Below are positions 1-12,335 of a DNA stretch of 64,000 nucleotides, piece after piece. A program made the position numbers and the translations under genes. Within the stretch, counting starts at the first letter, position 1. Each line of letters begins with the position of its first letter. The stretch covers positions 1 through 64,000 of the forward strand of contig NZ_JAHKRT010000006.1 of assembly GCF_018863195.1 (NCBI RefSeq), in the 5' to 3' direction. The notes under the pieces are model-generated. The model saw nothing but the letters and a program-made list of their open reading frames with translations, had not been told where the DNA came from and made no database searches. Origin of the DNA: Sphingomonas quercus (GTDB taxonomy: Bacteria > Pseudomonadota > Alphaproteobacteria > Sphingomonadales > Sphingomonadaceae).

Positions 1-83
1 TGGGTGGTCGCAGCGGGATAAACGCCCCGCCACAGGGTCTTGGACGAACTCATTTTCCGGAAACCTCCGTTGAAAGCACAGAT

Positions 84-97
84 CGTATACGGTATAT
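84..97 (+). promoter_or_regulatory. Putative operator, copy 1 of a shared 14-bp site
   Basis: The sequence CGTATACGGTATAT lies just before the first FAD oxidoreductase gene. Its core TATAC-N-GTATA is an odd-length palindrome. An identical copy is at 7070-7083 and a one-mismatch copy at 3648-3661, each in front of a gene of the same functional theme. The pattern resembles operators of GntR-type repressors, but the regulator is not encoded in the window, so the protein that binds is unknown. Confidence 0.6.
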
Positions 98-105
98 CAG
101 ACCGC

Positions 106-1389
106 GTGCAAACCGAAAATCTCGCCCAACCCAACCCAAATGCGCTCATTCCGGGCGCTGTCATAGTCGGCGGCGGGGTCGTCGGCCTGGCGATCGCCTG
201 CCGGCTTCAATTGCGCGGCATCGCGACCATGCTGGTCGATCCAGACGACGCGCCGCGCGGCGCGTCATGGGGCAATGCCGGCCATATCGCCGTCGAGCAG
301 GTCGAGCCGCTCGCCTCACGGGCGACGGTGCGCTCCATGCCGCGCCGGCTGTTCTGGCGCGGCGGCGCGCTTGGCCTGCCATGGCGGGACGCGGCGGCAT
401 GGCTGCCCTTCTCGCTGCGGCTGCTCGGCGCCACCCGGCCGGCGCGATTCGCCGCCGGGCGGGCCGCGCTCGCCGCGATCCTCGGCCAGGCGATGCCGGC
501 ATGGCGACGGCTGCTCGACGAGACCGGCGCGCGCGAGCTGCTGATCGAGGATGGCCATTTCGTCGTCTGGGAAAGCGCCGCGAGCGCAGCGGCAAGCAAG
601 GCGCGCTGGCAGGCGGCGGACATCGGCACGGCGGCGATCCGCGACGCTACCGCGGACGAGCTGGCCAAGATCAACGCGCTGGTCATGCGCCCCGTGGCCG
701 GCGCCATCCGTTTCATCGGCAGCGGCCAGATCGCCGATCTCGGCCTGCTCGCCGAGCGGCTGGCGGCGGCGTTCTCGGCCGCCGGCGGCATCCGGCGCAC
801 GGCACGGGTGGCGCGGCTGGAGCAGGCCGGCGGACGCGCCGTTGCGGTGCTGGAGGACGGCGCACGGCTGAGCGCGGATGCGCTGATCATCGCCGGCGGT
901 GCGCGATCGGGCGCATTGATGCGGCCGCTCGGTCATGCAGTGCCGATCATCGCCGAGCGCGGCTATCATATCCAGTCGGCCGATACCGAGTGGCCAGCCG
1001 ATATGCCCCCCATGGTGTTCGAGGATCGCTCGCTGATCGTCACCCGCTTCCGCTCCGGCCTGCGCGCGGCGAGCTTCGTCGAGTTCGGCCGCGCCGACAG
1101 CCCGCCCGATCCGCGCAAATGGGCGCGGCTGCGCGCCCATGTCGCCGCGCTTGGCCTCTCGTTCGGCCTGCCCGGTATCGAGTGGATGGGTGCCCGCCCG
1201 ACCCTGCCCGACTATCTGCCGGCGATCGGGCGGAGCAGGCGCGCCGGGAATCTCTATTACGCCTTCGGCCACCAGCATCTCGGCCTGACGCTGGCCGCCG
1301 CCACCGCCGAGGCGGTCGCCGCGGTCGTCGGCGGCGAGGCGCCGCCATTCGACCTCGCCCCCTTCACGCTCGATCGCTTCGGAGCCTGA
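106..1389 (+). CDS. FAD-dependent D-amino-acid dehydrogenase-like oxidoreductase (DadA family)
   Basis: The protein opens with an FAD-binding Rossmann motif (VIVGGGVVGLAIA) followed by a DAO-type fold, and ends with the family's C-terminal segment GNLYYAFGHQHLGLTLAAATAEAVA. Relatives oxidise D-amino acids or cyclic amines such as D-proline or hydroxyproline and pass electrons to quinones. I chose the GTG at 106 because it follows the 84-97 operator; TTG codons at 40 and 70 are in frame alternatives, and none has a strong ribosome-binding site. The stop is 3 bases before the M24 peptidase, so the two form an operon. With the convergent imine reductase it could turn a D-cyclic amino acid into its L form. 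The family call is firm; the substrate is inferred. Confidence 0.85.
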   Translation: MQTENLAQPNPNALIPGAVIVGGGVVGLAIACRLQLRGIATMLVDPDDAPRGASWGNAGHIAVEQVEPLASRATVRSMPRRLFWRGGALGLPWRDAAAWLPFSLRLLGATRPARFAAGRAALAAILGQAMPAWRRLLDETGARELLIEDGHFVVWESAASAAASKARWQAADIGTAAIRDATADELAKINALVMRPVAGAIRFIGSGQIADLGLLAERLAAAFSAAGGIRRTARVARLEQAGGRAVAVLEDGARLSADALIIAGGARSGALMRPLGHAVPIIAERGYHIQSADTEWPADMPPMVFEDRSLIVTRFRSGLRAASFVEFGRADSPPDPRKWARLRAHVAALGLSFGLPGIEWMGARPTLPDYLPAIGRSRRAGNLYYAFGHQHLGLTLAAATAEAVAAVVGGEAPPFDLAPFTLDRFGA

Positions 1390-1392
1390 ACC

Positions 1393-2595
1393 ATGACCAG
1401 CGGCATAGGCGGATCGACCGCCGGGCAGGAACTCGACGCCATCACGCCCTGGGCCGACGTCGCCCCGCCGATCGGGCGAGAGGAGCGCGAGCATCGCCTG
1501 GAGAAGGCCCGCCGCCTGATGCACGACGCCGGCGCCGACGCGCTGCTGATCGGCGCCGGCGCGTCGCTGCGCTATTTCGCCGGCGTGCCATGGGGTGCGA
1601 GCGAGCGTCTGGTGGCGATGTTGCTGCCGCGAGCCGGCCGGCCGATCCTGATCGCGCCGGTGTTCGAGCGAGGGACATTGGAGGCCGATCTGCTGATCGA
1701 CGCCGAGCTGCGGCTATGGGAGGAGGATGAATGTCCGTCCGCGCTGGTTGCCGCCGCGCTGCGCGAGACCGGCGCCACGACGCTGGCGATCGATCCGGCG
1801 ATGGCCTTCCTGTTCGTCGCGCGGCTGCGCGCCGTGGCACCATCGCTCGATCTCGTCGAGGGCAGCGCCGTCGTCGATGCCTGCCGCATGTACAAGTCGG
1901 CGGCGGAGCTGGCGCTGCTCCAACAGGCCAAGTCGATGACCCTCGAGGTGCATCGCCGCGCCGCGCGCATCCTCCGCCGCGGTATCCGCGCCAGCGAGGT
2001 TGCGCGTTTCCTCGATCAGGCGCACCGCGCGATCGGGGCGCCGGCCGGCAACAGCTTCGTCATCGTCCAGTTCGGCCGGGCGAGCGCCTTCCCGCACGGG
2101 TTGCCCGGCGACGCCCAGCTAGACGAGGGAGATGTCGTCCTGATCGACGTGGGCTGCGTCATCCACGGCTATCATTCCGATATCACCCGCACCTACATAT
2201 TCGGCGAAGCGGACGCCGAGCAGCGCCGCATATGGTCGCTGGAGCAGGAGGCGCAGGCCGCGGCCTTCGCCGCCGCGCGACCCGGCGTCCCGTGCGAGGC
2301 GGTGGACTATGCCGCGCGCGCCGTGCTTGAGAAGGCCGGTCTCGGGCCGGACTACCGCCTGCCCGGTCTGCCGCATCGCACCGGGCACGGCATCGGCCTG
2401 TCCATCCACGAACCGGCCTATCTGGTGCGCGGCGACCGCACCGCGCTGGCGCCGGGAATGTGCTTCTCCAACGAGCCGATGATCGTCATTCCCGATCGCT
2501 TCGGCGTGCGGCTGGAAGACCATTTCTACATGACCGAGGACGGCCCGCGCTGGTTCACCCAGCCGTCCCCGGCCATCGACCGGCCGTTCGGATAG
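1393..2595 (+). CDS. M24 family Xaa-Pro peptidase (prolidase/aminopeptidase P type)
   Basis: About 400 residues with an N-terminal creatinase-like domain and a C-terminal pita-bread metallopeptidase domain. Expected metal ligands are visible in order: two Asp in the IDVGCVIHGYHSDITRTY stretch (around 250-262), His in HRTGHGIG (around 330), Glu in NEPMIVIP (around 359) and Glu in RLEDHFY (around 375). Enzymes of this family cleave peptides or dipeptides next to proline, or hydrolyse creatine-like substrates. There is no signal peptide, so it is cytoplasmic. It starts 3 bases after the upstream oxidoreductase, with GGAG in front of the ATG, and is probably co-transcribed. The proline link agrees with ProC and the imine reductase nearby. 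Confidence 0.9.
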   Translation: MTSGIGGSTAGQELDAITPWADVAPPIGREEREHRLEKARRLMHDAGADALLIGAGASLRYFAGVPWGASERLVAMLLPRAGRPILIAPVFERGTLEADLLIDAELRLWEEDECPSALVAAALRETGATTLAIDPAMAFLFVARLRAVAPSLDLVEGSAVVDACRMYKSAAELALLQQAKSMTLEVHRRAARILRRGIRASEVARFLDQAHRAIGAPAGNSFVIVQFGRASAFPHGLPGDAQLDEGDVVLIDVGCVIHGYHSDITRTYIFGEADAEQRRIWSLEQEAQAAAFAAARPGVPCEAVDYAARAVLEKAGLGPDYRLPGLPHRTGHGIGLSIHEPAYLVRGDRTALAPGMCFSNEPMIVIPDRFGVRLEDHFYMTEDGPRWFTQPSPAIDRPFG

Positions 2596-2597
2596 GA

Positions 2598-3614
2598 TCA
2601 GTCCAGCAAGCGCTGCAGGTCCGCATAGAGCGCATGCGGCACGCGGACGCCATCGGCGATGCTGCGCGCGCGCGCGGCGAAGCGGCGCTCCGACGGCAGG
2701 CGCGCGCCCTGGCTGGTGATGTTGTCGAACAGCGCTTCGGCGCGCGCGATGTGGCTCGCCGCCTCAGCGCCGAGGAATCCGGCGGGGTCGATGGCCAGGA
2801 TCAGCTCTCCGCCGATCGGAGAGGAACCCGCGCCGGCGTCGAGCGCGATCGATTCGGCGCTGGTAAGGTCGCCGATCAGCGGCCCGGCGATCAGTTCGAT
2901 CATTGCCGACAGGGCCGAGCCCTTATGGCCGCCGAACGTCAGCATCGCGCCGGCCAGCGCGGCAGCGGCGTCGGTGGTCGGCTGGCCGTCCGCGTCCAGC
3001 CCCCAGCCATATGGAATCGGCTTGCCGGCGCGGCGGTGCAGCTCGATTTCGCCCCGCGCCACGGCGCTGGTCGCGAAATCGAACACGAAACTGCCTTCCG
3101 GGCGTGGCCAGCCGAAGGCGATCGGATTGGTGCCGAACACCGGCCGCGTGCCACCGGCAGGGGCCACCCAGGCATGGCTGGGCGTACAGGCGAGCGTGAC
3201 GAGGCCATGCGCCGTGACCGCCTCCACCTCGGGCCACAAAGCGGCGAAATGGACGCAATGGTTGAGGCCCATCGCGGCGATGCCGTTGCGCCGTGCCTTT
3301 TCGACCAGCACCGGCAGGCCGCGCTCGAATGCGAGCTGGGCGAAGCCGCCACCAGCATCGACGCGCACCAGCGCCGGGGCGACATCGTCGACAACCGGCA
3401 CCGCATCGGCCACGACCCCGCCGGAGCGAAGGGTGTTGACGCAGACGAGCAGGCGATAGACGCCGTGGCTGGCGCACTCGTCACGCTCCCCGGCGACGAT
3501 GGTCCGGGCCACCGCCTCGACATGATCGGCGGCGAGGCCATGTTTGCTCAATATGGCGCGAGACAGGCTGGCCACCTCGTCGAGGCTCAGTGCCACGCTC
3601 TCATGATCGTTCAC
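2598..3614 (-). CDS. Ldh2/malate dehydrogenase-family NAD(P)H oxidoreductase, possible cyclic imine (pyrroline/piperideine-2-carboxylate) reductase
   Basis: This belongs to the non-Rossmann malate/L-lactate dehydrogenase family (YlbC/YbiC type). Signature stretches are SHAWVAPAGGTRPVFGTNPI and GGHKGSALSAMIELIAGPL. Members include malate, lactate and ureidoglycolate dehydrogenases and the delta1-piperideine/pyrroline-2-carboxylate reductases; the Ser-His-Ala-Trp form before VAPAGG is reminiscent of the imine reductases, but I cannot test this. The GTG at 3614 has GGAG five bases upstream; a GTG at 3620 is an alternative. It converges on the M24 gene with 2 bases between stops. A copy of the shared operator lies about 34 bases upstream of the start. 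Confidence 0.85.
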   Translation of the reverse strand: MNDHESVALSLDEVASLSRAILSKHGLAADHVEAVARTIVAGERDECASHGVYRLLVCVNTLRSGGVVADAVPVVDDVAPALVRVDAGGGFAQLAFERGLPVLVEKARRNGIAAMGLNHCVHFAALWPEVEAVTAHGLVTLACTPSHAWVAPAGGTRPVFGTNPIAFGWPRPEGSFVFDFATSAVARGEIELHRRAGKPIPYGWGLDADGQPTTDAAAALAGAMLTFGGHKGSALSAMIELIAGPLIGDLTSAESIALDAGAGSSPIGGELILAIDPAGFLGAEAASHIARAEALFDNITSQGARLPSERRFAARARSIADGVRVPHALYADLQRLLD

Positions 3615-3647
3615 AAACACTCCGCAACAGGTCGATTAAGGCGCTAT

Positions 3648-3661
3648 CGTATACGTTATAT
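3648..3661 (-). promoter_or_regulatory. Putative operator, copy 2 of the shared site
   Basis: CGTATACGTTATAT (plus-strand reading) differs at one base from the copies at 84-97 and 7070-7083. It lies 34 bases upstream of the Ldh2-family gene, a typical promoter position. The right half-site is weakened by the mismatch. Confidence 0.55.
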
Positions 3662-3701
3662 ACTCTGACCGCCAGCAGAACGGGTCTGCCGGGCGCAAGG
3701 A

Positions 3702-6700
3702 TCAATTCTCGCCCTCGCCCTCGCCATCTGCCTCGGCTTCGCTGGCGCTGTTGCCCTCGCTCGCTTCATCCTTGTCGGCGGGCGGCACCGTCAAGCTCAG
3801 CGGCGGCATATGCTGACTGGTGAGCAGTCTGTTGAAGGCGGGAACGTCCTTCGCGTTCAGCGCGGCGAAATGGTCGACGCTTGCCCTGAGATCCTTCTCG
3901 ATCAGCGCGACGAGGTTGACAGCCGTGTCGGTCGGCTTCTGCTCGGCGGCGCCGGCAACGTCCAGGACATTGCCGTTGAGGCCGGCATAGGTCCACATCA
4001 GGTTGAAATAGACCTTGTAGGCAGACAGGTAATATTTGTCGTCGCTGGGCGCCATGTCCTTGTTGAGCAACTCATATTCCACGGACTGGAGTCTCGCATC
4101 GAACGCCGCAGCGGCCTTGCTCAGCCGGGCGTTGCCGGCGATTTTGGGCTGCATGTCCTCGATCTGACGACGCATCCATTCGATCGAATTGATGACGTCG
4201 CTTGCCTGCCTGACGTCGTCGCGCAGGCGCAGCTGCAACTTCGTCGTCTCCGCCAGTTCGGCGACGCTGCCCGGGCTGTTCGGATCGGGCATGATCTCGA
4301 TCGACGCCGTCCGGGTTTGGCTGTTTGCCGTCAGGCGCACCTGATAGAGGCCGGGCGGCACCAGCGGGCCGGATTGACGAGCGGGCAGGCCCCACTGGGT
4401 CACTGTGCGGTATTCGTGGTTGTTCTTGAAGCGCGGCTCATCCCACAAATGCGGATTCTCCGGCGGCAGGGTGCGCAGCAAGGCGGTGCTGAGTGAATCG
4501 TAGCGCAGATTCCACATGATCCGGTTGAGCCCGGCCTTGCCCGGGTGGGTCAGGGTGCGGATGATGCTGCCGTCCTGGCCGAGGATCTCGACACGGACGG
4601 GCTCGGCGGGGGACTTTTTCAGCATGAAATCGACATAGGCCGCCTGGCCGCGCGGCAGGCGATAGGTCGGCCGCGGATCGAACAGCCGCACGTCGGGCGT
4701 CGCCCTGCCGGCGGCGAGATCGGCCGACATCTGCTCCAGCGGGCTGATGTCGGGGAGGATGTAGAAGCCGCGCCCCCAGGTCGACACGACGAGATCGTGG
4801 AAGCGCGGCTGCACCACCGTCCAGGTGACGGGCGATGGCGGCAAGCCGTCCTTCAGCCGCACCCAATTGTCGCCCGCATCGAGCGAGTAATAAAGGCCGG
4901 CGCCGGTTCCCGCGAACAGCAGGCCTCTGGCATTGGGATCTTCCGCGACGTTGCGGACATAGGCGAGTTCGCCGCGCGGGAGGGTAGCGTCGATCCGCGT
5001 CCAGCTCTTTCCGAAGTCGCGGGTGCGATAGATATAGGGATCGCGATTGTCGTTGATGTGGAAATCCACCGCGACATAGGCGGTGCCGGCATCGAAGCTC
5101 GACGGTTCGATGCTGGCGATCGTGCCCCAGGCGGGCATGCCGGCGATGTTCTTCGTGACGTCCGTCCACCGGCCGCCGCCGTCCAGCGTATACCAGAGCT
5201 TGCCGTCATTGGTGCCGGCCCAGATCAGCCCCTTCTGCTTGCGGGACGGGGCGATGGCATAGACGACCTCGCCATAGAACTGGCCGAGATTGTCCCCGAC
5301 CAGCCCCCCCGACGAACCGAGGCGGCGGGGATCCTGCGTCGAAAGATCCGGGCTGATGATCTTCCAGCTCTGGCCTTCGTTGCTGGTCTGGAAGATCATC
5401 TGGCAGCCATAATAGACCGTCTTGGGATCGAAGGGGTCGATGGCGAGCGGCGCCGTCCAGTGACAGCGATATTTGCTGTCGCCGGGCGCCGCGCTCAGCG
5501 TGTGCAGCCACGGCGCCACTGAGCGGGCGAGCCTCGTCCTGGCATCCCAGCGCGTTACCTCGTTGCCGTAGCAAGTGGCCCAGACCACGTCGGGATTGCC
5601 GGGCTCGGGCACGGTCCAGCCGGATTCGCAGCCGCCCATGCCATGCTCCCAGCCCGCCGCGTTGCCGAGGCCCCAGGACGTGCTGCCGAAAGGCACGCTC
5701 GGCCCGCGCATCGTGCTGTTGTCCTGCATGTTGCCGTAGAAATTATAGGGGATGCGATCATCGACGGCGACATGATAGATTTGGCCGATCGGCAGGCTCG
5801 TCTTGCGCCAGCCGTCGCCGCCGACGGTGGTGATGTCGACGCCACCATCATAGGTTATGGCGAAATGGTTCGGATCCTTGGGGTCCAGCCAGATGTCGTG
5901 ATTGTCCCCGCCCCAGTTGCGCACCTCGAACGTCTTTCCGCCGTCGGTGGAAAGGTGATAATTGCTACTGGCGACATAGACCTTGTTCTCGTCCCCCGGC
6001 GACACCGCGATCTTGATGTAATAGCCGGCCCGCCCGGCCAGCGTGCGATCCCAGCTCGACACCTGCCATTTCGCGCCGCCATCGTCGGAGCGCCACACAG
6101 AACCTTGGCCCGGCGCCTGGATCAGCGCGTAGATACGCTTGGAGTTGCCTGGTGCGATCGCCACGTCGATCTTGCCGACCGGCGATTTCGGCATGCCGTG
6201 GCCGACCACGCGCTGCCAGTTCCTGCCGCCGTCGTGAGTGATGAAAACGCCGCTGCCCAGACCGCCGCTGTCCATGCCCCATGTATGCATCACCACCTGC
6301 CAGGTCCCGGCGATGAGCGTGTTGGGATCACTGGCATCCATGGATAGGCCCGAGCAGCCCGTGTCGGCATCGACGAACAGCGAGCGCGTCCAGTTGCGGC
6401 CGCCGTCCGTGGTGTGGAACACGCCGCGCTCCTGCTGCGGGCCGGTCATGCGTCCGCCCGCGCACACCCAGAGCTCGTCCGGATTGGTCGGGCTCGCGAT
6501 CATCGTGGCGATGCGGCCGCTGCCCTTGAGCCCGACATGCGTCCACGTCTTGCCGGCATCGGTGGAACGATAAATGCCGTCGCCCATGACATCCATGTCG
6601 CGGATCGCCCACGCCTCGCCCGTGCCCGCCCACACGACGTCCGGATTGACCGGGGATACGGCCAGCGCACCGATGGCGGCCACCGGCTGATCGTCGAAGA

Positions 6701-6998
6701 CAGGAACCCAGCGATTGCCGCCGTCGGTGGTCTTCCAGATGCCGCCGGATGCCGCGCCGGCATAATAGGTCGTCTTGTTACCCGGAATGCCGGCGACCGA
6801 TGCGACGCGGTTGCCCTGCGCAGGGCCGGCGAAACGGAACGCGAAGACATTGGGATCGCCGCGGCCGCGCTGCGCCGTCGCATTGCTCGCAGGCAGGAGC
6901 GCAAACAGCGCAGCGATTGCCAGAATGAGCCGACCGAAGGTTCGAAAATCGACCGATCTACGGTTGGCCTTCGCCGCGTTGGTGCGATGCTTGCCCAT
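3702..6998 (-). CDS. Exported sortilin/VPS10-like beta-propeller protein
   Basis: A protein of nearly 1100 residues. A hydrophobic signal segment (LILAIAALFALLPASNATAQ) is followed by many BNR/Asp-box repeats, such as TTDGGNRW, STDAGKTW, TTDGGRNW, THDGGRNW, SDDGGAKW, STDGGKTF and TLDGGGRW, filling roughly residues 60-750. A mixed C-terminal region follows, ending in an acidic Glu/Asp/Gly tail. Such proteins are often named glycosyl hydrolases, but no glycosidase active site is recognisable; ligand binding is as likely. I chose the ATG at 6998 (MGKHRTNAAK) because the signal peptide then starts normally; an in-frame start 36 bases upstream exists. It is divergent from the DUF885 pair, with the shared operator between them. 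Confidence 0.85.
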   Translation of the reverse strand: MGKHRTNAAKANRRSVDFRTFGRLILAIAALFALLPASNATAQRGRGDPNVFAFRFAGPAQGNRVASVAGIPGNKTTYYAGAASGGIWKTTDGGNRWVPVFDDQPVAAIGALAVSPVNPDVVWAGTGEAWAIRDMDVMGDGIYRSTDAGKTWTHVGLKGSGRIATMIASPTNPDELWVCAGGRMTGPQQERGVFHTTDGGRNWTRSLFVDADTGCSGLSMDASDPNTLIAGTWQVVMHTWGMDSGGLGSGVFITHDGGRNWQRVVGHGMPKSPVGKIDVAIAPGNSKRIYALIQAPGQGSVWRSDDGGAKWQVSSWDRTLAGRAGYYIKIAVSPGDENKVYVASSNYHLSTDGGKTFEVRNWGGDNHDIWLDPKDPNHFAITYDGGVDITTVGGDGWRKTSLPIGQIYHVAVDDRIPYNFYGNMQDNSTMRGPSVPFGSTSWGLGNAAGWEHGMGGCESGWTVPEPGNPDVVWATCYGNEVTRWDARTRLARSVAPWLHTLSAAPGDSKYRCHWTAPLAIDPFDPKTVYYGCQMIFQTSNEGQSWKIISPDLSTQDPRRLGSSGGLVGDNLGQFYGEVVYAIAPSRKQKGLIWAGTNDGKLWYTLDGGGRWTDVTKNIAGMPAWGTIASIEPSSFDAGTAYVAVDFHINDNRDPYIYRTRDFGKSWTRIDATLPRGELAYVRNVAEDPNARGLLFAGTGAGLYYSLDAGDNWVRLKDGLPPSPVTWTVVQPRFHDLVVSTWGRGFYILPDISPLEQMSADLAAGRATPDVRLFDPRPTYRLPRGQAAYVDFMLKKSPAEPVRVEILGQDGSIIRTLTHPGKAGLNRIMWNLRYDSLSTALLRTLPPENPHLWDEPRFKNNHEYRTVTQWGLPARQSGPLVPPGLYQVRLTANSQTRTASIEIMPDPNSPGSVAELAETTKLQLRLRDDVRQASDVINSIEWMRRQIEDMQPKIAGNARLSKAAAAFDARLQSVEYELLNKDMAPSDDKYYLSAYKVYFNLMWTYAGLNGNVLDVAGAAEQKPTDTAVNLVALIEKDLRASVDHFAALNAKDVPAFNRLLTSQHMPPLSLTVPPADKDEASEGNSASEAEADGEGEGEN

Positions 6999-7069
6999 GT
7001 CCAGTTCCCGCGTCCCTGACCCTTGGCCACGCACGAGGCTAGAATCCCCTTGGAGGCCTTGCCGTATTA

Positions 7070-7083
7070 CGTATACGGTATAT
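7070..7083 (+). promoter_or_regulatory. Putative operator, copy 3 of the shared site, in a divergent promoter region
   Basis: CGTATACGGTATAT is identical to the copy at 84-97. It lies in the 154-base gap between the divergent sortilin-like gene (start 6998) and the first DUF885 peptidase (start 7153), 70 bases from either start. One bound regulator could control both transcripts. Confidence 0.6.
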
Positions 7084-7152: not shown

Positions 7153-8931
7153 ATGAGCGCAAACCTGTCCCTGAGGCGTCCGCAGGCTCGCGCATCATGG
7201 GCCGTCCTGCCGCTGGCGATGGGGGCGCTGATTTCGTCCGCCTGCGCCCGTCCGCAAGCGGAGACGGCCGACGCGCGCCTGAAGGCGCTGTACGACGCGG
7301 AATGGAACTGGCGGCAGAAAGAGCTGGCCCGCGGCGAGGACGAAGAGGACGGCAGCCCGTCCCTGCCTCATGTCGACCCCGCCAGCCAGAAGCGGCGGGC
7401 CGATTATTGGGCGAATGCGCTCGACAAGCTGGCCGACATCCCGGTCGATCAACTTTCCCCCGAAGAAAAGATCAACGCGGCGGTCTTCCGGGCCGCGCTC
7501 GAAGGCTTCGTCTCCGAGTATAAGTTCAAGGAGTATGAAAACCCCTTCGGTTTCTGGACGTGGATGGCGCCGCGCCGCGGCTTCGGCAACGCGCAGGCCT
7601 ATCGCAACTATTCCAGCCGTCTGCGCGACATGCCGCGCTTCATTGACGAGCAGATCGCCAATATGCGCGCCGGCCTTGCCCGCGGCTTCACCAATCCGCA
7701 GGTGTCGCTGGGCGAGCGTTACAAGCCGATCGAGCCCCTGGCCGCGCCGGACATCGAGGCCAACCCGCTGTTCGGCCCGTTCAAGATGATGCCGGACGGC
7801 CTCACCGCGGGCCAGCGCGAGGCGCTGCTCGCCGAGGGCAAGGCGGCCGCCGCGATCGCGGCGCCGGCCTTCGCCAGGCTCCTCGCCTTCGTCCGCGACG
7901 ATTATATCCCGCACGCCCGCAAGACCACGGCCGGAGAGGCACTGCCCGATGGCAAGGCCTTCTATCTCGCCAAGGTGCGGCAATATACGACGCTGGAGCT
8001 GACCCCGGATCAGATCCACCAGATCGGCCTCAAGGAAGTCGCCCGCATCGACGCGGATATGCAGGCGACGATGAAGCAGGCCGGCTGGAAAGGCGACTTC
8101 CAGGGCTTTCTCCATTTCCTCAAGACCGATCCGCAGTTCACGGCGAAGACGCCTTACGAACTGATCGCGAAGTCCGCCTATGTCGCCAACAAGATCAACG
8201 GCGAGCTGAAATATACGGTCGGCATGCTGCCGCGCTATCGCTTCACGATCCGGCCGACCCCCGCGAACATCGCGCCCTTCGCCACCGGCGGCAATGGCGG
8301 CCTCGAAAGCTGCCTGATGAACACCTATGACCTGCCGGCCCGCCCGCTCTACACCATCCCGCCGCTGACCGCGCACGAATGCGTGCCGGGCCACAGCTTC
8401 CAGGCGGCGCTGGCGCTGGAGGGGCCTGACCGGCCGGCGATCCGCAAATCCACCTATTTCTCCGGCTATGGCGAAGGCTGGGCGCTCTACATGGAGTGGC
8501 TCGGCACCAAATGGGGAATCTACGAAACGCCCTATGACGAGTTCGGCCGCGAAACCTATGAAATGTGGCGGGCCGCACGCCTCGTCGTCGATACCGGGCT
8601 GCACCATATGGGTTGGACGCGCGATCAGGCGCTCGACTATATGAAGAGCCACACGGCGCTCTCGGACCATGAGGTGACGATCGAGGTCGATCGCTATCTC
8701 AACGATCCCGGCCAGGCGCTGGCCTACACGCTCGGCGAGATGCTCATCCGCCGCAAGCGCGCCGAGGCGGAGACGAAGCTCGGCACCGCGTTCGATCAGC
8801 GCTGGTTCCACGATGTCATCCTCGGCCTCGGCGCAGTGCCGCTGCCAACGCTGGAACAGGTGCTCGATCGCTGGATCGCCGGCGGCGGCAAGGATCCCTA
8901 TGCCGGCAAGACCGGCTTCAAGCTTCCCTGA
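7153..8931 (+). CDS. DUF885 family exported metallopeptidase-like protein, paralog 1
   Basis: A protein of 592 residues with an N-terminal export signal (SWAVLPLAMGALISSACA; the Cys is only a weak lipobox) and one DUF885 domain. The probable zinc site is HECVPGH at about residue 408, followed by FSGYGEGWALYMEWLG, the conserved downstream helix of the family. DUF885 proteins are predicted gluzincin-like peptidases; specificity is unknown. The open frame continues far upstream, but the ATG at 7153 gives the signal peptide a proper start. The next gene is a full-length paralog beginning 15 bases after this stop, and an S10 carboxypeptidase follows, so the three form a peptidase operon. Confidence 0.88.
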   Translation: MSANLSLRRPQARASWAVLPLAMGALISSACARPQAETADARLKALYDAEWNWRQKELARGEDEEDGSPSLPHVDPASQKRRADYWANALDKLADIPVDQLSPEEKINAAVFRAALEGFVSEYKFKEYENPFGFWTWMAPRRGFGNAQAYRNYSSRLRDMPRFIDEQIANMRAGLARGFTNPQVSLGERYKPIEPLAAPDIEANPLFGPFKMMPDGLTAGQREALLAEGKAAAAIAAPAFARLLAFVRDDYIPHARKTTAGEALPDGKAFYLAKVRQYTTLELTPDQIHQIGLKEVARIDADMQATMKQAGWKGDFQGFLHFLKTDPQFTAKTPYELIAKSAYVANKINGELKYTVGMLPRYRFTIRPTPANIAPFATGGNGGLESCLMNTYDLPARPLYTIPPLTAHECVPGHSFQAALALEGPDRPAIRKSTYFSGYGEGWALYMEWLGTKWGIYETPYDEFGRETYEMWRAARLVVDTGLHHMGWTRDQALDYMKSHTALSDHEVTIEVDRYLNDPGQALAYTLGEMLIRRKRAEAETKLGTAFDQRWFHDVILGLGAVPLPTLEQVLDRWIAGGGKDPYAGKTGFKLP

Positions 8932-8946
8932 CCTGGAGATCCGACG

Positions 8947-10722
8947 TTGAGCATCACCAAGCGCCTGCGCCTGCTCCCGCTGCTGCTTGCCGCCACCGCG
9001 GCCGCCGCCGCCTCACCCTCGCTCGCCCAGCCCGGCGGCGCCGATGCCCGGCTGCGCGCGCTCTACGAGAAGGAATGGGCGTGGCGGCAGCAGGAGCTTG
9101 CCCGCGCCACCGGCGACGACGGATTCAGCGCCAGTGGCGATCATCTGCCGCGCGTCGACGCCGCCAGCCAGGAGGCCCGGCTGGCTTATTGGCGAGCCGT
9201 CCTCGTCGAGCTCGACAAGGTCCCCGTCGACCAGCTCAGCCATGAGGAAGCGATCAACGCGGCGGTGTTCCGCACGAGTATCGAGGCGTTCGTCGCGCAG
9301 GGCAAATATCGCGCCTGGGAGATGCCGTTCACCGCGGACAGCAATTTCTGGTCCGGCCTGAGCTCGCGCGCGCCGTTCCGCACCGCCGAGCTCTACCGAC
9401 GCTATCTCGGGCGGATGCGCGACGTGCCGCGCTATTTCGACGAGCAGATCGTCAACATGCGCGCCGGGCTGAAGCGCGGCTTCAGCGTGCCGCGCGCGAC
9501 CCTGGAAGGGCGCGACGCCTCGATCGCCGCCTATACCGATCCGGACGTGGCGAAGAACCCTTTCTACGCCGCCTTTCGGGATATGCCGAACTCGGTCCCG
9601 CCGGCCGAACGCGAGCGGATGCAGGCCGAGGCGCGGGAGCTGATCTCGAAACAGATCATCCCGGCCTATGCCAAGTTGCTGACCTTCTTCCGCCAGGACT
9701 ATCTGGCGCAGACCCGCAAGACCACCGCCGCCGAGGATATGCCGGACGGCAAGGCTTATTATCAGGCGCAGATCAAGGAATATACCACCACCGATCTCAC
9801 CGCCGAGCAGATCCACCAGATCGGCCTCAAGGAAGTCGAGCGGATCGACGCTGACATGCACAAGACGATGGCAGCGGCCGGATTCAAGGGCACGATCGGC
9901 CAGTTCATCGAGTTTCTGCGCACCGATCCGCAGTTCATCGCCCGCACGCCGGACGAACTGATGGGCTATTCGGCCTATGTCTCGAAACGCGCGGACGGCA
10001 AGCTGAAAGACGAGCTCGGCCTCCTGCCGCGCTACCGCTTCGCGATCAACCCGGTCCCCGACGCGATCGCGCCCTTCTACACCGCCGGGCGCGGCGGGCT
10101 CGATGCGTGCCTGATGAACACTTACGACCTCAAGTCGCGGCCGCTCTACAATATCCCGGCACTGACGCTTCACGAATGCAACCCGGGCCACAGCCTGCAG
10201 GCGGCGCTCGCCCGCGAGGCACCGGCCCGGCCGGACTTTCGCCGCAGCACCTATTTCTCCGGCTATGGCGAAGGCTGGGGGCTGTACACCGAATGGCTCG
10301 GCATCGAGATGGGGATCTATCGCACGCCCTATGAGGAATTCGGCCGCGAAACCTACGAGATGTGGCGCGCGGTGCGCCTCGTCATCGACACCGGCATGCA
10401 TCATTATGGTTGGAGCCGGCAGAAGGCGATCGATTATCTCGCCGGCCATACCGCACTTTCCCGCCACGAGGTCGAGACCGAGGTGGACCGCTACATCAGC
10501 TGGCCGGGCCAGGCGCTGGCCTACAAGCTGGGCGAGCTGACCATCCGGCGGGAGCGCGCCAAGGCCGAGCAGGCGCTCGGCCCGAAATTCGACCGGCGCT
10601 GGTTCCACGATACGCTGCTCGCGCTCGGATCGGTGCCGCTGACGGTGCTGGAACGCGAGCTCGACGCATGGATCGCCGCCGGCGGTCCCAACCCCAATGC
10701 CGACAAGGTTGACGCGAACTGA
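8947..10722 (+). CDS. DUF885 family exported metallopeptidase-like protein, paralog 2
   Basis: A protein of 591 residues, closely similar to the preceding gene over its whole length (both carry RKTTA, EQIHQIGLKEVxRID, NTYDL, TYFSGYGEGW). The zinc-site equivalent is HECNPGH at about residue 409. The signal peptide is clear: LLPLLLAATAAAAASPSLAQ. Translation starts at a TTG at 8947 with GGAG nine bases upstream; no in-frame ATG fits. The pair arose by tandem duplication, and the second metal-site motif has Asn in place of Val, so substrate range may have diverged. Its stop overlaps an upstream ATG of the next gene (TGATG). Confidence 0.88.
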   Translation: MSITKRLRLLPLLLAATAAAAASPSLAQPGGADARLRALYEKEWAWRQQELARATGDDGFSASGDHLPRVDAASQEARLAYWRAVLVELDKVPVDQLSHEEAINAAVFRTSIEAFVAQGKYRAWEMPFTADSNFWSGLSSRAPFRTAELYRRYLGRMRDVPRYFDEQIVNMRAGLKRGFSVPRATLEGRDASIAAYTDPDVAKNPFYAAFRDMPNSVPPAERERMQAEARELISKQIIPAYAKLLTFFRQDYLAQTRKTTAAEDMPDGKAYYQAQIKEYTTTDLTAEQIHQIGLKEVERIDADMHKTMAAAGFKGTIGQFIEFLRTDPQFIARTPDELMGYSAYVSKRADGKLKDELGLLPRYRFAINPVPDAIAPFYTAGRGGLDACLMNTYDLKSRPLYNIPALTLHECNPGHSLQAALAREAPARPDFRRSTYFSGYGEGWGLYTEWLGIEMGIYRTPYEEFGRETYEMWRAVRLVIDTGMHHYGWSRQKAIDYLAGHTALSRHEVETEVDRYISWPGQALAYKLGELTIRRERAKAEQALGPKFDRRWFHDTLLALGSVPLTVLERELDAWIAAGGPNPNADKVDAN

Positions 10723-10742
10723 TGAAAAGGGAGGCTATCACC

Positions 10743-12335
10743 ATGCGCAAAAGCCAGCTTGTTGTTGCCGCGACGGTTCTCGCCGTCTTCGCCCCACCGC
10801 TCGCCGCGCAGCGCCAGGGCGACGCCGCCCGCGAGCAGGGCGCCGCCGATCGGGAGCAGGACAAGGCGGCGAGGCCCGCCGACCCCGATGTCGCGCTGGC
10901 CAGCGCCACCGAGGACGCGCAGCCCAGGCGCGGCAGCGTCACCGTCGCCGGCAAGCTCATCAACTACACCGTCACCCCCGGCACGCTCACCATCCGCAAC
11001 GACAATGGCGAGGCGGTGGCGAGCATGTTCTACGTCGCCTATGTCGCTGATCGCCCCGCCGGCGCGGCCGAGCGCCCGGTGACCTTCACCTATAATGGCG
11101 GCCCGGGCTCATCCTCGATGTGGCTGCACATGGGCTCGATCGGCCCGGTGCATGTCGAGACGCCGGACCCCGCCGCCACCGCCCCGGCGCCGTTCCGCAT
11201 CACCAGCAATCCCCACACCATGCTGGACAAGACGGACATCGTGTTCCTCGACGCGATCGGCACCGGCCTGTCGCGCCCGATCGGCAAGTCCAAAGGCCCG
11301 GAATTCTACGGCGTGGATCAGGATATCGACGCCTTCGCGCGCGGCGTTCAGCGCTATCTGACGATCAACGATCGCTGGAACAGCCCGAAATTCCTGTTCG
11401 GCGAAAGCTATGGCACGCTGCGTTCCGCCGGTCTCGCCTATGCGCTGCAACAGCGCGGGGTACAGGTGAACGGGGTGACCTTGCTCTCGTCGATCCTCAA
11501 CTACGGCGTGCGCCAGCCCGGCTACGACCAGATCAACCTCACCTTTCTGCCGAGCTACGCGGCAACTGCCTGGTACCACAACAGGCTGCCGAACCGCCCG
11601 CCCGCGCTGGAGCCGTTTCTGACCGAGGTGCGGCAATGGGCGATCGGCCCCTATGCGACCGCTCTGGCCAAGGGCTCCGACCTGCCGGACGCCGAACGCA
11701 ATGCCATCGCCCAGCAGATGAGCGCCTATACCGGCCTTTCCGTGAAATATCTGCTCGACGCCGATTTGCGCGTCGACCTGTCGCGGTTCCGCAAGGAGCT
11801 GCTGCGTGACCAGCGCCGCACAGTCGGGCGGCTCGATTCCCGCTTCATCGGCATAGATGTCGACGCAGCGGGCGAGGGGCCGGAATATGACACCACCGAT
11901 ACCTCGATCAGCGGCCCCTATATCGGCGCGCTCAACAAATATCTGTTCGGCACCCTCGGCTACAAGACCAAGCTCAGCTACCGGCCCAATTATTATAGCG
12001 GCATCAGCGGCCAATGGGACCAGCGCCATCGCGGGCCGGGCGGCCGCGCTGGCGGCGGCAACATGGCGCTGGCCGACACCGCCCTGGATCTGTCCGCCGC
12101 GATGCGGCAGAACCCGCATCTGAAAGTCCTGTCGCTGAACGGTTATTACGACATGGCGACGCCGTTCTTCGGGGCGGAATATGACCTGAAGCATATGCAG
12201 ATCGATCCGACGCTACAGAAAAACGTGACCTTCCATTATTATGAGTCCGGTCACATGGTTTACATCAATCCGGCCGTGACCGCGCAATTCAAGAAGGACC
12301 TGGACGCCTTCTACGATTCCGCCGTTCATCCCTGA
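10743..12335 (+). CDS. S10 family serine carboxypeptidase-like protein, exported
   Basis: A protein of 530 residues with signal peptide (QLVVAATVLAVFAPPLAAQ). The catalytic triad of the serine carboxypeptidase family is visible: Ser in GESYG near residue 222, Asp in NGYYDMATPF near 470, and His in ESGHMVYI near 504. The oxyanion region YNGGPGSSSMW precedes it. The ATG at 10743 has GGGAGG at ideal spacing; an ATG at 10722 overlapping the previous stop is in frame but has no such site. The family removes C-terminal residues from peptides in the periplasm. It is the last gene of the DUF885 operon and runs tail to tail into proC with a 10-base overlap. Confidence 0.92.
   Translation: MRKSQLVVAATVLAVFAPPLAAQRQGDAAREQGAADREQDKAARPADPDVALASATEDAQPRRGSVTVAGKLINYTVTPGTLTIRNDNGEAVASMFYVAYVADRPAGAAERPVTFTYNGGPGSSSMWLHMGSIGPVHVETPDPAATAPAPFRITSNPHTMLDKTDIVFLDAIGTGLSRPIGKSKGPEFYGVDQDIDAFARGVQRYLTINDRWNSPKFLFGESYGTLRSAGLAYALQQRGVQVNGVTLLSSILNYGVRQPGYDQINLTFLPSYAATAWYHNRLPNRPPALEPFLTEVRQWAIGPYATALAKGSDLPDAERNAIAQQMSAYTGLSVKYLLDADLRVDLSRFRKELLRDQRRTVGRLDSRFIGIDVDAAGEGPEYDTTDTSISGPYIGALNKYLFGTLGYKTKLSYRPNYYSGISGQWDQRHRGPGGRAGGGNMALADTALDLSAAMRQNPHLKVLSLNGYYDMATPFFGAEYDLKHMQIDPTLQKNVTFHYYESGHMVYINPAVTAQFKKDLDAFYDSAVHP

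What the first reader, a model, noticed from the sequence alone, without database searches (positions are those of the whole stretch)
84..7083. Three matching operators define a probable peptide/proline regulon without a regulator in sight
CGTATACGGTATAT occurs identically at 84-97 and 7070-7083, with a 13/14 match at 3648-3661, and each lies in front of a different transcript: the DadA-like/M24 pair, the imine reductase, and the divergent sortilin-like gene and DUF885-S10 operon. Two exact copies of a 14-mer, all placed in promoter positions within 7 kb of GC-rich DNA, are not expected by chance. The centre TATAC-N-GTATA is palindromic, as with GntR-type sites. The regulator is not encoded inside the window and may lie left of base 1. 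The regulon as a whole seems undescribed to me.
Basis: partly seen in the sequence, partly recalled or inferred. Interest (0 to 1): 0.7.

Follow-up and report, generated by a model that had tools for sequence, protein, structure and literature searches.

The report
Hydroxyproline-use regulon in a sphingomonad
The three matching sites are most likely real switch sites through which one repressor controls genes for taking apart hydroxyproline-containing peptides and burning the hydroxyproline; it looks like a new version of a kind of control circuit already known in other bacteria.

Summary
In detail: the 14-mer is exact at 84-97 and 7070-7083, one mismatch at 3648-3661; 0.00015 matches with at most one mismatch are expected in this 7.1 kb. 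The window starts at a contig end. Its first 127 bases equal the ends of two other contigs, which shows what lies left of base 1: a divergent operon of a DapA-family enzyme, 4-hydroxyproline epimerase, a GntR/FCD regulator (1.9-2.5 kb left) and a permease. The window adds a DadA-like enzyme, prolidase, imine reductase and DUF885 proteins. In 48 related loci TATACNGTATA (at most one mismatch) occurs 68 times (29 permuted half-sites: mean 3.5, largest 26); 63 of 68 lie upstream of cluster genes, none inside. So this is most likely a hydroxyproline-utilisation regulon under a local GntR repressor. It works like the HypR regulon, but the regulator is not HypR's orthologue by best hit (27% identity), and in relatives it includes a GH127-clan enzyme and DUF885 proteins. 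Sortilin-like and S10 genes have little or no comparative support. Binding, inducer, repression and substrates are inferred. New variant of a known kind.

The parts
1..127 (.). contig-end overlap shared exactly with the right end of contig C6 and (reverse complement) the end of contig C15; holds the start of the divergent DapA-family gene (its ATG ends at 53, reading left)
   Evidence: 127-base identity; DapA ORF L037:2418-3332(-)
84..97 (+). operator 1 (CGTATACGGTATAT), between divergent DapA-family gene and DadA-like gene
   Evidence: head-to-head DadA/DapA arrangement in 16 of 48 related loci, site present in 12 of the 16
106..1389 (+). DadA-like FAD oxidoreductase; proposed cis-4-hydroxy-D-proline dehydrogenase (start GTG 106 proposed; listed ORF opens at TTG 40)
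   Evidence: PF01266 149.9 bits; no NCBIfam model over its cut-off, best D-amino acid dehydrogenase 127 of 383 bits; 34% to the FAD oxidoreductase in the S. meliloti hyp cluster
1393..2595 (+). M24 prolidase (Xaa-Pro dipeptidase)
   Evidence: PF00557 194.5 bits; 514 bits to the solved proline dipeptidase 4r60
2598..3620 (-). Ldh_2-family imine reductase, proposed Delta1-pyrroline-2-carboxylate reductase
   Evidence: PF02615 312 bits; 237 bits to delta1-piperideine-2-carboxylate reductase 1wtj, next best 126; no NCBIfam model over its cut-off; 57% to the Ldh gene in the S. meliloti hyp cluster
3648..3661 (+). operator 2 (CGTATACGTTATAT), 27 bp upstream of the listed imine reductase start
   Evidence: one mismatch
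3702..6998 (-). sortilin/BNR-repeat protein (listed ORF opens at GTG 7034), divergent from operator 3; membership unsupported
   Evidence: PF15902 87 bits; relative in 0 of 48 loci
7070..7083 (+). operator 3 (CGTATACGGTATAT), upstream of DUF885-DUF885-S10
   Evidence: overlapping 2-mismatch core at 7065; promoter-like hexamers at 7016-7045 just upstream
7153..8931 (+). DUF885 protein a, proposed exported peptidase
   Evidence: PF05960 454.7 bits
8947..10722 (+). DUF885 protein b
   Evidence: PF05960 491 bits; relatives in 21 of 48 loci; 240 bits to 3o0y
10722..12335 (+). S10-type serine carboxypeptidase
   Evidence: PF00450 40 bits, cut-off 21.9; relative in 1 of 48 loci, 29% identical, next to epimerase and prolidase in L169

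Best explanation
The three sites are operators of a GntR/FCD repressor encoded about 1.9-2.5 kb left of base 1, in the operon divergent from the window's first gene. The repressor controls uptake and breakdown of 4-hydroxyproline and of peptides that hold it. Prolidase, DUF885 and perhaps S10 peptidases release imino acids; the permease takes them up; the epimerase turns trans-4-hydroxy-L-proline into cis-4-hydroxy-D-proline; the DadA-like enzyme oxidises this to Delta1-pyrroline-4-hydroxy-2-carboxylate; the DapA-family enzyme deaminates it to alpha-ketoglutaric semialdehyde; an aldehyde dehydrogenase on contig C3 makes alpha-ketoglutarate; the Ldh_2 imine reductase recycles the proline-derived imine to L-proline. 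Without inducer a GntR dimer sits on TATACNGTATA at or near the promoter and blocks it; hydroxyproline or an intermediate releases it. Shown: sites, gene families, neighbourhood, conservation of site with genes. Inferred: binding by this GntR, repression, inducer, enzyme substrates.
For: Assembly link: C12:1-127 equals C6:3280-3406 and C6:1-127 equals the end of C1. C6 encodes a DapA-family enzyme, 4-hydroxyproline epimerase (NF010578, 538 bits, cut-off 376), GntR (58.5 bits) plus FCD (74.5 bits), and a permease running into C1. The head-to-head order DadA/DapA that this join predicts is seen in 16 of 48 other loci, 12 with the site between. In 40 loci, 29 of 34 DapA genes have a <=1-mismatch site within 250 bp upstream (29 permuted half-sites: mean 0.21, largest 2), GH127 8 of 13, GntR 13 of 40, DUF885 3 of 14, while epimerase has 0 of 33 and permease 0 of 31, as for genes inside operons. 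In 48 loci: 68 sites, 63 within 350 bp upstream of cluster genes, 5 elsewhere, 0 inside. Exact CGTATACNGTAT is in 6 of 9 genomes with the GntR orthologue and 4 of 31 without (Fisher p 0.003). The aldehyde dehydrogenase on C3 is 55% identical to that of the S. meliloti hyp cluster.
Against: No binding or expression data. 5 of 34 DapA genes lack a site at this threshold, as do 4 of 16 head-to-head regions; L150 has the cluster and GntR with no <=1-mismatch site. Four GntR loci without a DapA hit have no site in the stretch read (L061, a 4.4 kb contig, L071, L079, L171), and L076 has one far from GntR. Ldh_2 has its own site in 1 of 9 relatives, M24 in 1 of 29, DadA (over-long query) in 0 of 29. 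The DapA enzyme is only 31% identical to S. meliloti HypD over 71%; DapA, DadA, Ldh_2 and the C3 aldehyde dehydrogenase pass no NCBIfam cut-off, and the epimerase passes one of three 4-hydroxyproline epimerase models. The C3 operon with GH127 and aldehyde dehydrogenase has only overlapping 2-mismatch sites. The relatives are related to one another, so counts are not independent. A sigma-70 scan found no promoter at sites 1 and 2.
Confidence: 0.8

Rival explanations
1. The sites form a real regulon, but another regulator in the genome binds them, not the C6 GntR.
For: The genome has 16 GntR-domain genes over the Pfam cut-off. The protein nearest to S. meliloti HypR is C12:94546 (33%, 92.7 bits), not the C6 GntR (27%, 56 bits). 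The operator TATACNGTATA does not follow the TKGT/ACMA consensus given for FadR-type regulators (PMC4494728, passages).
Against: 37 of 48 loci hold both DapA and this GntR (note that most loci were found through the GntR), and it has its own upstream site in 13 of 40; 27 of 31 genomes without its orthologue lack the exact motif. The C12:94546 gene stands beside ORFs that look like CoA-transferase and enoyl-CoA hydratase, not hyp genes (my reading of the translations).
Confidence: 0.12
2. The repeated 14-mer is not an operator but a shared AT-rich promoter element.
For: Sites sit close to gene starts (DapA median 27 bp) and resemble -10 elements.
Against: The palindrome, its absence from the rest of the window, its concentration upstream of one pathway's genes in 48 loci and the much lower counts for permuted half-sites are not expected of a general promoter element.
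Confidence: 0.03
3. The regulon serves D-amino-acid or proline peptide use in general, with hydroxyproline only one substrate.
For: The imine reductase is nearest to a piperideine-2-carboxylate reductase, and only one proline-racemase-family gene was found in the genome, so no separate trans-3-hydroxyproline dehydratase explains it.
Against: The epimerase passes a 4-hydroxyproline epimerase model and falls below the proline racemase and trans-3-hydroxyproline dehydratase cut-offs.
Confidence: 0.2

Closest known systems
HypR hydroxyproline regulon of Sinorhizobium meliloti and other Proteobacteria (Leyn 2016 PMC5343134, section 11 and passages read; White 2012 known only through its citation there)
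   Same: GntR-family regulator, epimerase, oxidoreductase, deaminase, aldehyde dehydrogenase; prolidases and peptidases in Alteromonadales/Aeromonas versions; an Ldh-family gene beside the S. meliloti cluster
   Different: regulator not the HypR orthologue by best hit (27%); operator TATACNGTATA; an APC-type permease, where the paper names ABC, MFS and TRAP transporters; DUF885 and, in relatives, a GH127-clan enzyme as members
HypR of Streptomyces coelicolor (PMC6608401, passages including the abstract)
   Same: FCD-type GntR that represses hydroxyproline genes and a putative collagenase gene
   Different: its motif CTNTGC(A/C)ATGTCAC is unlike the one here; different phylum
Proline racemase superfamily gene neighbourhoods (PMC4113996, passages)
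   Same: 4-hydroxyproline epimerase beside DAAO, DHDPS, aldehyde dehydrogenase and MLD2 (Ldh_2) proline-ketimine reductase
   Different: the word GntR does not occur in its main text; no operator analysis in the passages seen
Bifidobacterial beta-L-arabinooligosaccharide use (PMC7263609, PMC10850190; search listing and abstract starts only)
   Same: beta-L-arabinofuranosidases of the GH127/GH146 kind acting on plant hydroxyproline-rich glycoproteins
   Different: carbohydrate use only in what was seen; no coupling to hydroxyproline catabolism there

Membership tests
FadR/FCD subfamily of GntR regulators | N-terminal GntR winged helix and C-terminal FCD domain | tested here: met
   PF00392 58.5 bits (cut-off 27) and PF07729 74.5 bits (cut-off 24.3)
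FadR/FCD subfamily of GntR regulators | typical (not defining) operator with TKGT/ACMA boxes, usually 3 nt between GT and AC | tested here: not met
   53-site matrix centres on TATAC-S-GTATA, i.e. AC-N-GT in the middle; consensus from PMC4494728, which also lists exceptions such as NanR and BioR, so the subfamily is not excluded
HypR orthologue group (S. meliloti) | orthology to S. meliloti HypR | tested here: not met
   27% identity; S. meliloti HypR's best hit in this genome is C12:94546, 92.7 against 56 bits. No tree was built; the S. meliloti gene was taken as HypR from its place in the cluster
HypR-type regulon | epimerase, D-hydroxyproline dehydrogenase and deaminase genes under one operator type | tested here: met
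   operator 1 lies between both divergent units; 29 of 34 DapA genes in relatives. Predicted, not measured
HypR-type regulon | alpha-ketoglutaric semialdehyde dehydrogenase (hypH) under the same regulator | tested here: inconclusive
   55% homologue of the S. meliloti cluster's aldehyde dehydrogenase in a likely operon on C3 whose upstream region has three overlapping 2-mismatch cores
HypR-type regulon | autoregulation | tested here: met
   GntR lies in the closely spaced gene run that starts at operator 1; 13 of 40 relatives have a site upstream of GntR, in several of which a divergent DadA shares it. Predicted only
HypR-type regulon | repressor released by 4-hydroxyproline | not testable with these tools
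   needs binding and expression assays
4-hydroxyproline epimerase | passes a curated equivalog model | tested here: met
   NF010578 538 bits, cut-off 376; below cut-off for two other 4-hydroxyproline epimerase models, for proline racemase and for trans-3-hydroxyproline dehydratase
Pyr4H2C deaminase (HypD) | DapA-family enzyme in hyp operons, acting on Pyr4H2C | tested here: inconclusive
   DHDPS 192.7 bits, 31% to S. meliloti HypD, next to the epimerase in many loci; substrate not tested

The most novel reading that the evidence does not exclude
Sphingomonads have a dedicated regulon for plant hydroxyproline-rich glycoproteins (extensin/arabinogalactan-protein type): a GntR/FCD regulator that replaced HypR, with an unusual TATACNGTATA operator, switches on together a GH127-clan beta-L-arabinofuranosidase that strips Hyp-linked arabinose, DUF885 peptidases and prolidase that free hydroxyproline, and the enzymes that burn it, sugar and imino acid both ending as alpha-ketoglutaric semialdehyde.
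Probability: 0.45. Interest if true: 0.62.

Novelty: new variant of a known kind. Interest (0 to 1): 0.5.

Why it matters
It names a regulator, an operator and a gene set that can be tested at once, gives the DUF885 family (of unknown function in Pfam's description) a peptide-release role to test, and suggests how sphingomonads may feed on hydroxyproline glycoproteins. If a tree confirms the orthology result, it also shows an unrelated or distant GntR regulator in the HypR role.

Tried and rejected
Sigma-70 scan at the three sites: nothing at sites 1 and 2; one + strand hit at 7016-7045, 24 bp before site 3, with 0.1 expected, compatible with an operator just downstream of that promoter but only a consensus match. 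By eye site 1 overlaps TTGAAA-17-TATATC, which the scan did not pass; not used as evidence.

Other near matches in the genome: for C9:110809, C14:139842, C15:38497, C1:148062, C9:413154 and C15:95295 the 3 kb round the site hold no relative of a cluster gene; C1:3232, C1:456973, C9:325254 and C10:100279 were seen only as ORF maps (the others also). C15:38497 is inside an ORF. All treated as background or as another regulator's sites.

MFS transporter at the C15 end as a member: its listed start is about 190 bp from the shared site, it passes no NCBIfam cut-off and has no relative in the 48 loci; left open. The 500-aa ORF on C3 behind site C3:51543 has no Pfam or NCBIfam match and no relative in the 48 loci.

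Orthology to S. meliloti HypR was tested and not met. Of the 45 loci, the 12 weakest (L083-L094) were dropped before the counts: L083 holds hyp-like genes without a site, the other 11 show no cluster gene and no site. One search uses 40 loci and drops genes whose match begins after residue 60 or that have under 100 bp upstream; one search uses 48 loci. One of the 9 orthologue-bearing genomes, G003, was not fetched for the locus counts. first gave 10 of 16 head-to-head regions with a site because the DadA query began at TTG 40 and ran over the site; with the GTG 106 start it is 12 of 16. The search for a second left neighbour of C6 scored 40 of 142 candidates.
Full report
OBSERVATION. The 14-mer CGTATACGGTATAT is exact at 84-97 and 7070-7083 and has one mismatch at 3648-3661. 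A first-order Markov model of the 7.1 kb expects 1.5e-4 matches with at most one mismatch there and 0.001 exact matches in a genome of this size. The core TATACNGTATA with up to 2 mismatches is found in the 64 kb window only at these three places. In the whole genome the exact 14-mer is listed four times. With looser settings the motif is not enriched genome-wide: CGTATACNGTAT with up to one mismatch has 11 matches against 8 for its reversed control, and TATACNGTATA with up to 2 mismatches has 130 places against 292. So only near-exact sites, position and conservation carry weight.

WHAT LIES LEFT OF BASE 1. The window is C12:1-64000 of a 15-contig assembly, so base 1 is a contig end. Bases 1-127 equal the last 127 bases of contig C6 (3406 bp) and the reverse complement of the last 127 of C15; C6 bases 1-127 equal the last 127 of C1. 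Identical 127-base ends are what an assembly graph of k = 127 leaves at a branch (inference). Hence C6 very probably adjoins the window, and also C15, so it may be a two-copy segment collapsed in assembly; a second left neighbour was not found (40 of 142 candidates scored). Three of the four exact 14-mers are this one overlap; the real genome probably has two or three copies.

C6 carries, reading away from the window, a DapA-family enzyme (PF00701), a 4-hydroxyproline epimerase (NF010578, 538 bits against 376), a GntR/FCD regulator (C6:730-1395) and an amino-acid permease that continues into C1. The DapA gene begins at window position 53 reading left, so site 84-97 lies 30 bp upstream of it and 8 bp upstream of the likely GTG start (106) of the DadA-like gene.

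THE WINDOW GENES. DadA-like FAD oxidoreductase; M24 protein with 514 bits to a solved proline dipeptidase; Ldh_2 protein nearest to delta1-piperideine-2-carboxylate reductase (237 bits, next 126); sortilin/BNR protein; two DUF885 proteins; an S10-type peptidase. Against the S. meliloti hyp cluster (L148, L156): epimerase 62%, Ldh 57%, aldehyde dehydrogenase 55% (ours is on contig C3), FAD oxidoreductase 34%, DapA 31%, GntR 27%. DapA, DadA, Ldh_2 and the aldehyde dehydrogenase pass no NCBIfam cut-off, so their exact substrates rest on neighbourhood. One proline-racemase-family gene was found in the genome.

COMPARATIVE TEST. A scan with the C6 GntR gave 45 loci; 33 are strong (46-67% identity), 30 of these with Sphingomonadales genus names in the title (my reading). 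A recurrent cluster appears: prolidase and DadA on one side, DapA-epimerase-GntR-permease on the other, often with GH127, Ldh_2 and DUF885. In 40 loci (those 33, one Sphingomonas plasmid and six unnamed relatives), 29 of 34 DapA genes have a <=1-mismatch TATACNGTATA within 250 bp upstream; 29 half-sites of the same composition give 0.21 on average and 2 at most. GH127 8 of 13, GntR 13 of 40, DUF885 3 of 14, Ldh_2 1 of 9, M24 1 of 29, DadA 0 of 29 (query start too far upstream), aldehyde dehydrogenase 0 of 2; epimerase 0 of 33, permease 0 of 31, as expected for genes inside operons. In L055, L056, L066 and L082 GH127, Ldh_2 and DUF885 follow one another on one strand behind a site. In 48 loci (952 kb; eight more from relatives and plasmids) there are 68 sites against a mean of 3.5 for permuted half-sites (largest 26); 63 lie within 350 bp upstream of a cluster gene, 5 elsewhere, none inside a matched cluster gene. 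Head-to-head DadA/DapA occurs in 16 loci, 12 with a site between, which independently supports joining C6 to this window.

Among 40 genomes, exact CGTATACNGTAT is in 6 of the 9 that have the GntR orthologue (over 200 bits, own genome included) and 4 of 31 that do not (Fisher p 0.003). The reversed control gives 2 matches in the 9 genomes (pattern 11, overlap copies included) and 18 in the 31 (pattern 7). In the five other orthologue-bearing genomes with matches, 5 of 6 matches lie within 10 kb of the GntR gene and the sixth is upstream of a GH127 gene.

OTHER OWN-GENOME MEMBERS. A one-mismatch site (CGTATACGGTATTT) at C3:51543-51556 is 22 bp upstream of a 500-aa ORF without family matches. About 7 kb away an amidohydrolase, a GH127-clan enzyme and the aldehyde dehydrogenase lie on one strand, divergent from a TonB-dependent receptor, with three overlapping 2-mismatch cores between (C3:58761-58785). 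This may bring the last pathway enzyme under the same control, but it is weak. The GH127-clan enzyme's nearest solved relative is 5opj (486 bits), which from recall belongs to GH146.

MECHANISM. Shown: sites, families, synteny, conservation. Inferred: the C6 GntR binds as a dimer and blocks the promoters, and hydroxyproline or an intermediate lifts this, as stated for S. meliloti HypR in PMC5343134, section 11.

AGAINST. L150 has cluster and regulator but no <=1-mismatch site; 5 of 34 DapA genes and 4 of 16 head-to-head regions lack one; GntR loci L061, L071, L079 and L171 show no site. The operator does not follow the FadR-subfamily consensus (PMC4494728, passages). The loci are related to one another, and most were found through the GntR itself, so counts are not independent of it.

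KNOWN OR NEW. HypR regulons with epimerase, oxidoreductase, deaminase, dehydrogenase, collagenases and prolidases are published (PMC5343134, section 11; PMC6608401, passages). The regulator here is not the HypR orthologue by best hit. Searches for hydroxyproline with Sphingomonas and regulon (0 papers), 4-hydroxyproline epimerase with Sphingomonadaceae, hydroxyproline with Sphingomonadales, hydroxyproline with Sphingomonas and extensin, hydroxyproline with GH127, extensin and arabinofuranosidase and HypR with hydroxyproline and GntR listed no paper that by title or abstract start describes such a regulon. The library holds open-licence papers only, and supplements and RegPrecise were not consulted, so a Sphingomonadales entry there is not excluded.

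Noticed in passing
window 1-127; C6; C15 end: C6 (3.4 kb) may be a collapsed repeat joining C12 and C15; at C15 the DapA operon would face an MFS transporter gene instead of the DadA gene. A second left neighbour was not found.
   Followed up: partly
G000:C14:139842 (L016): Perfect palindrome CCTGTATACTCTATACAGG about 30 bp upstream of the listed start of an ORF that by eye resembles a sugar-phosphate isomerase/epimerase: perhaps the operator of another regulator.
   Followed up: no
L037:730-1395: The GntR is nearer to Sphingobium (67%), Sphingosinicella (65%) and Sphingopyxis (64%) proteins than to its orthologues in same-genus genomes (53-54%), which hints at horizontal transfer of the cluster.
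   Followed up: no
L169 (Sphingomonas parapaucimobilis plasmid): FAD oxidoreductase, 4-hydroxyproline epimerase, Xaa-Pro peptidase and an S10 peptidase lie together, mild support for the window's S10 gene as a member.
   Followed up: partly
L068, L078, L081, L146, upstream of GH127: A second flavour of the site, ATATTATACGGTATATAAT-like, precedes GH127 genes; it may reflect a second regulator or a different affinity.
   Followed up: no
L167 (Niveispirillum cyanobacteriorum, Rhodospirillales): A similar gene set with prolidase and DUF885 and a one-mismatch site before DapA on one replicon, a 49% GntR relative on another (L171), so the arrangement is not confined to Sphingomonadales.
   Followed up: partly
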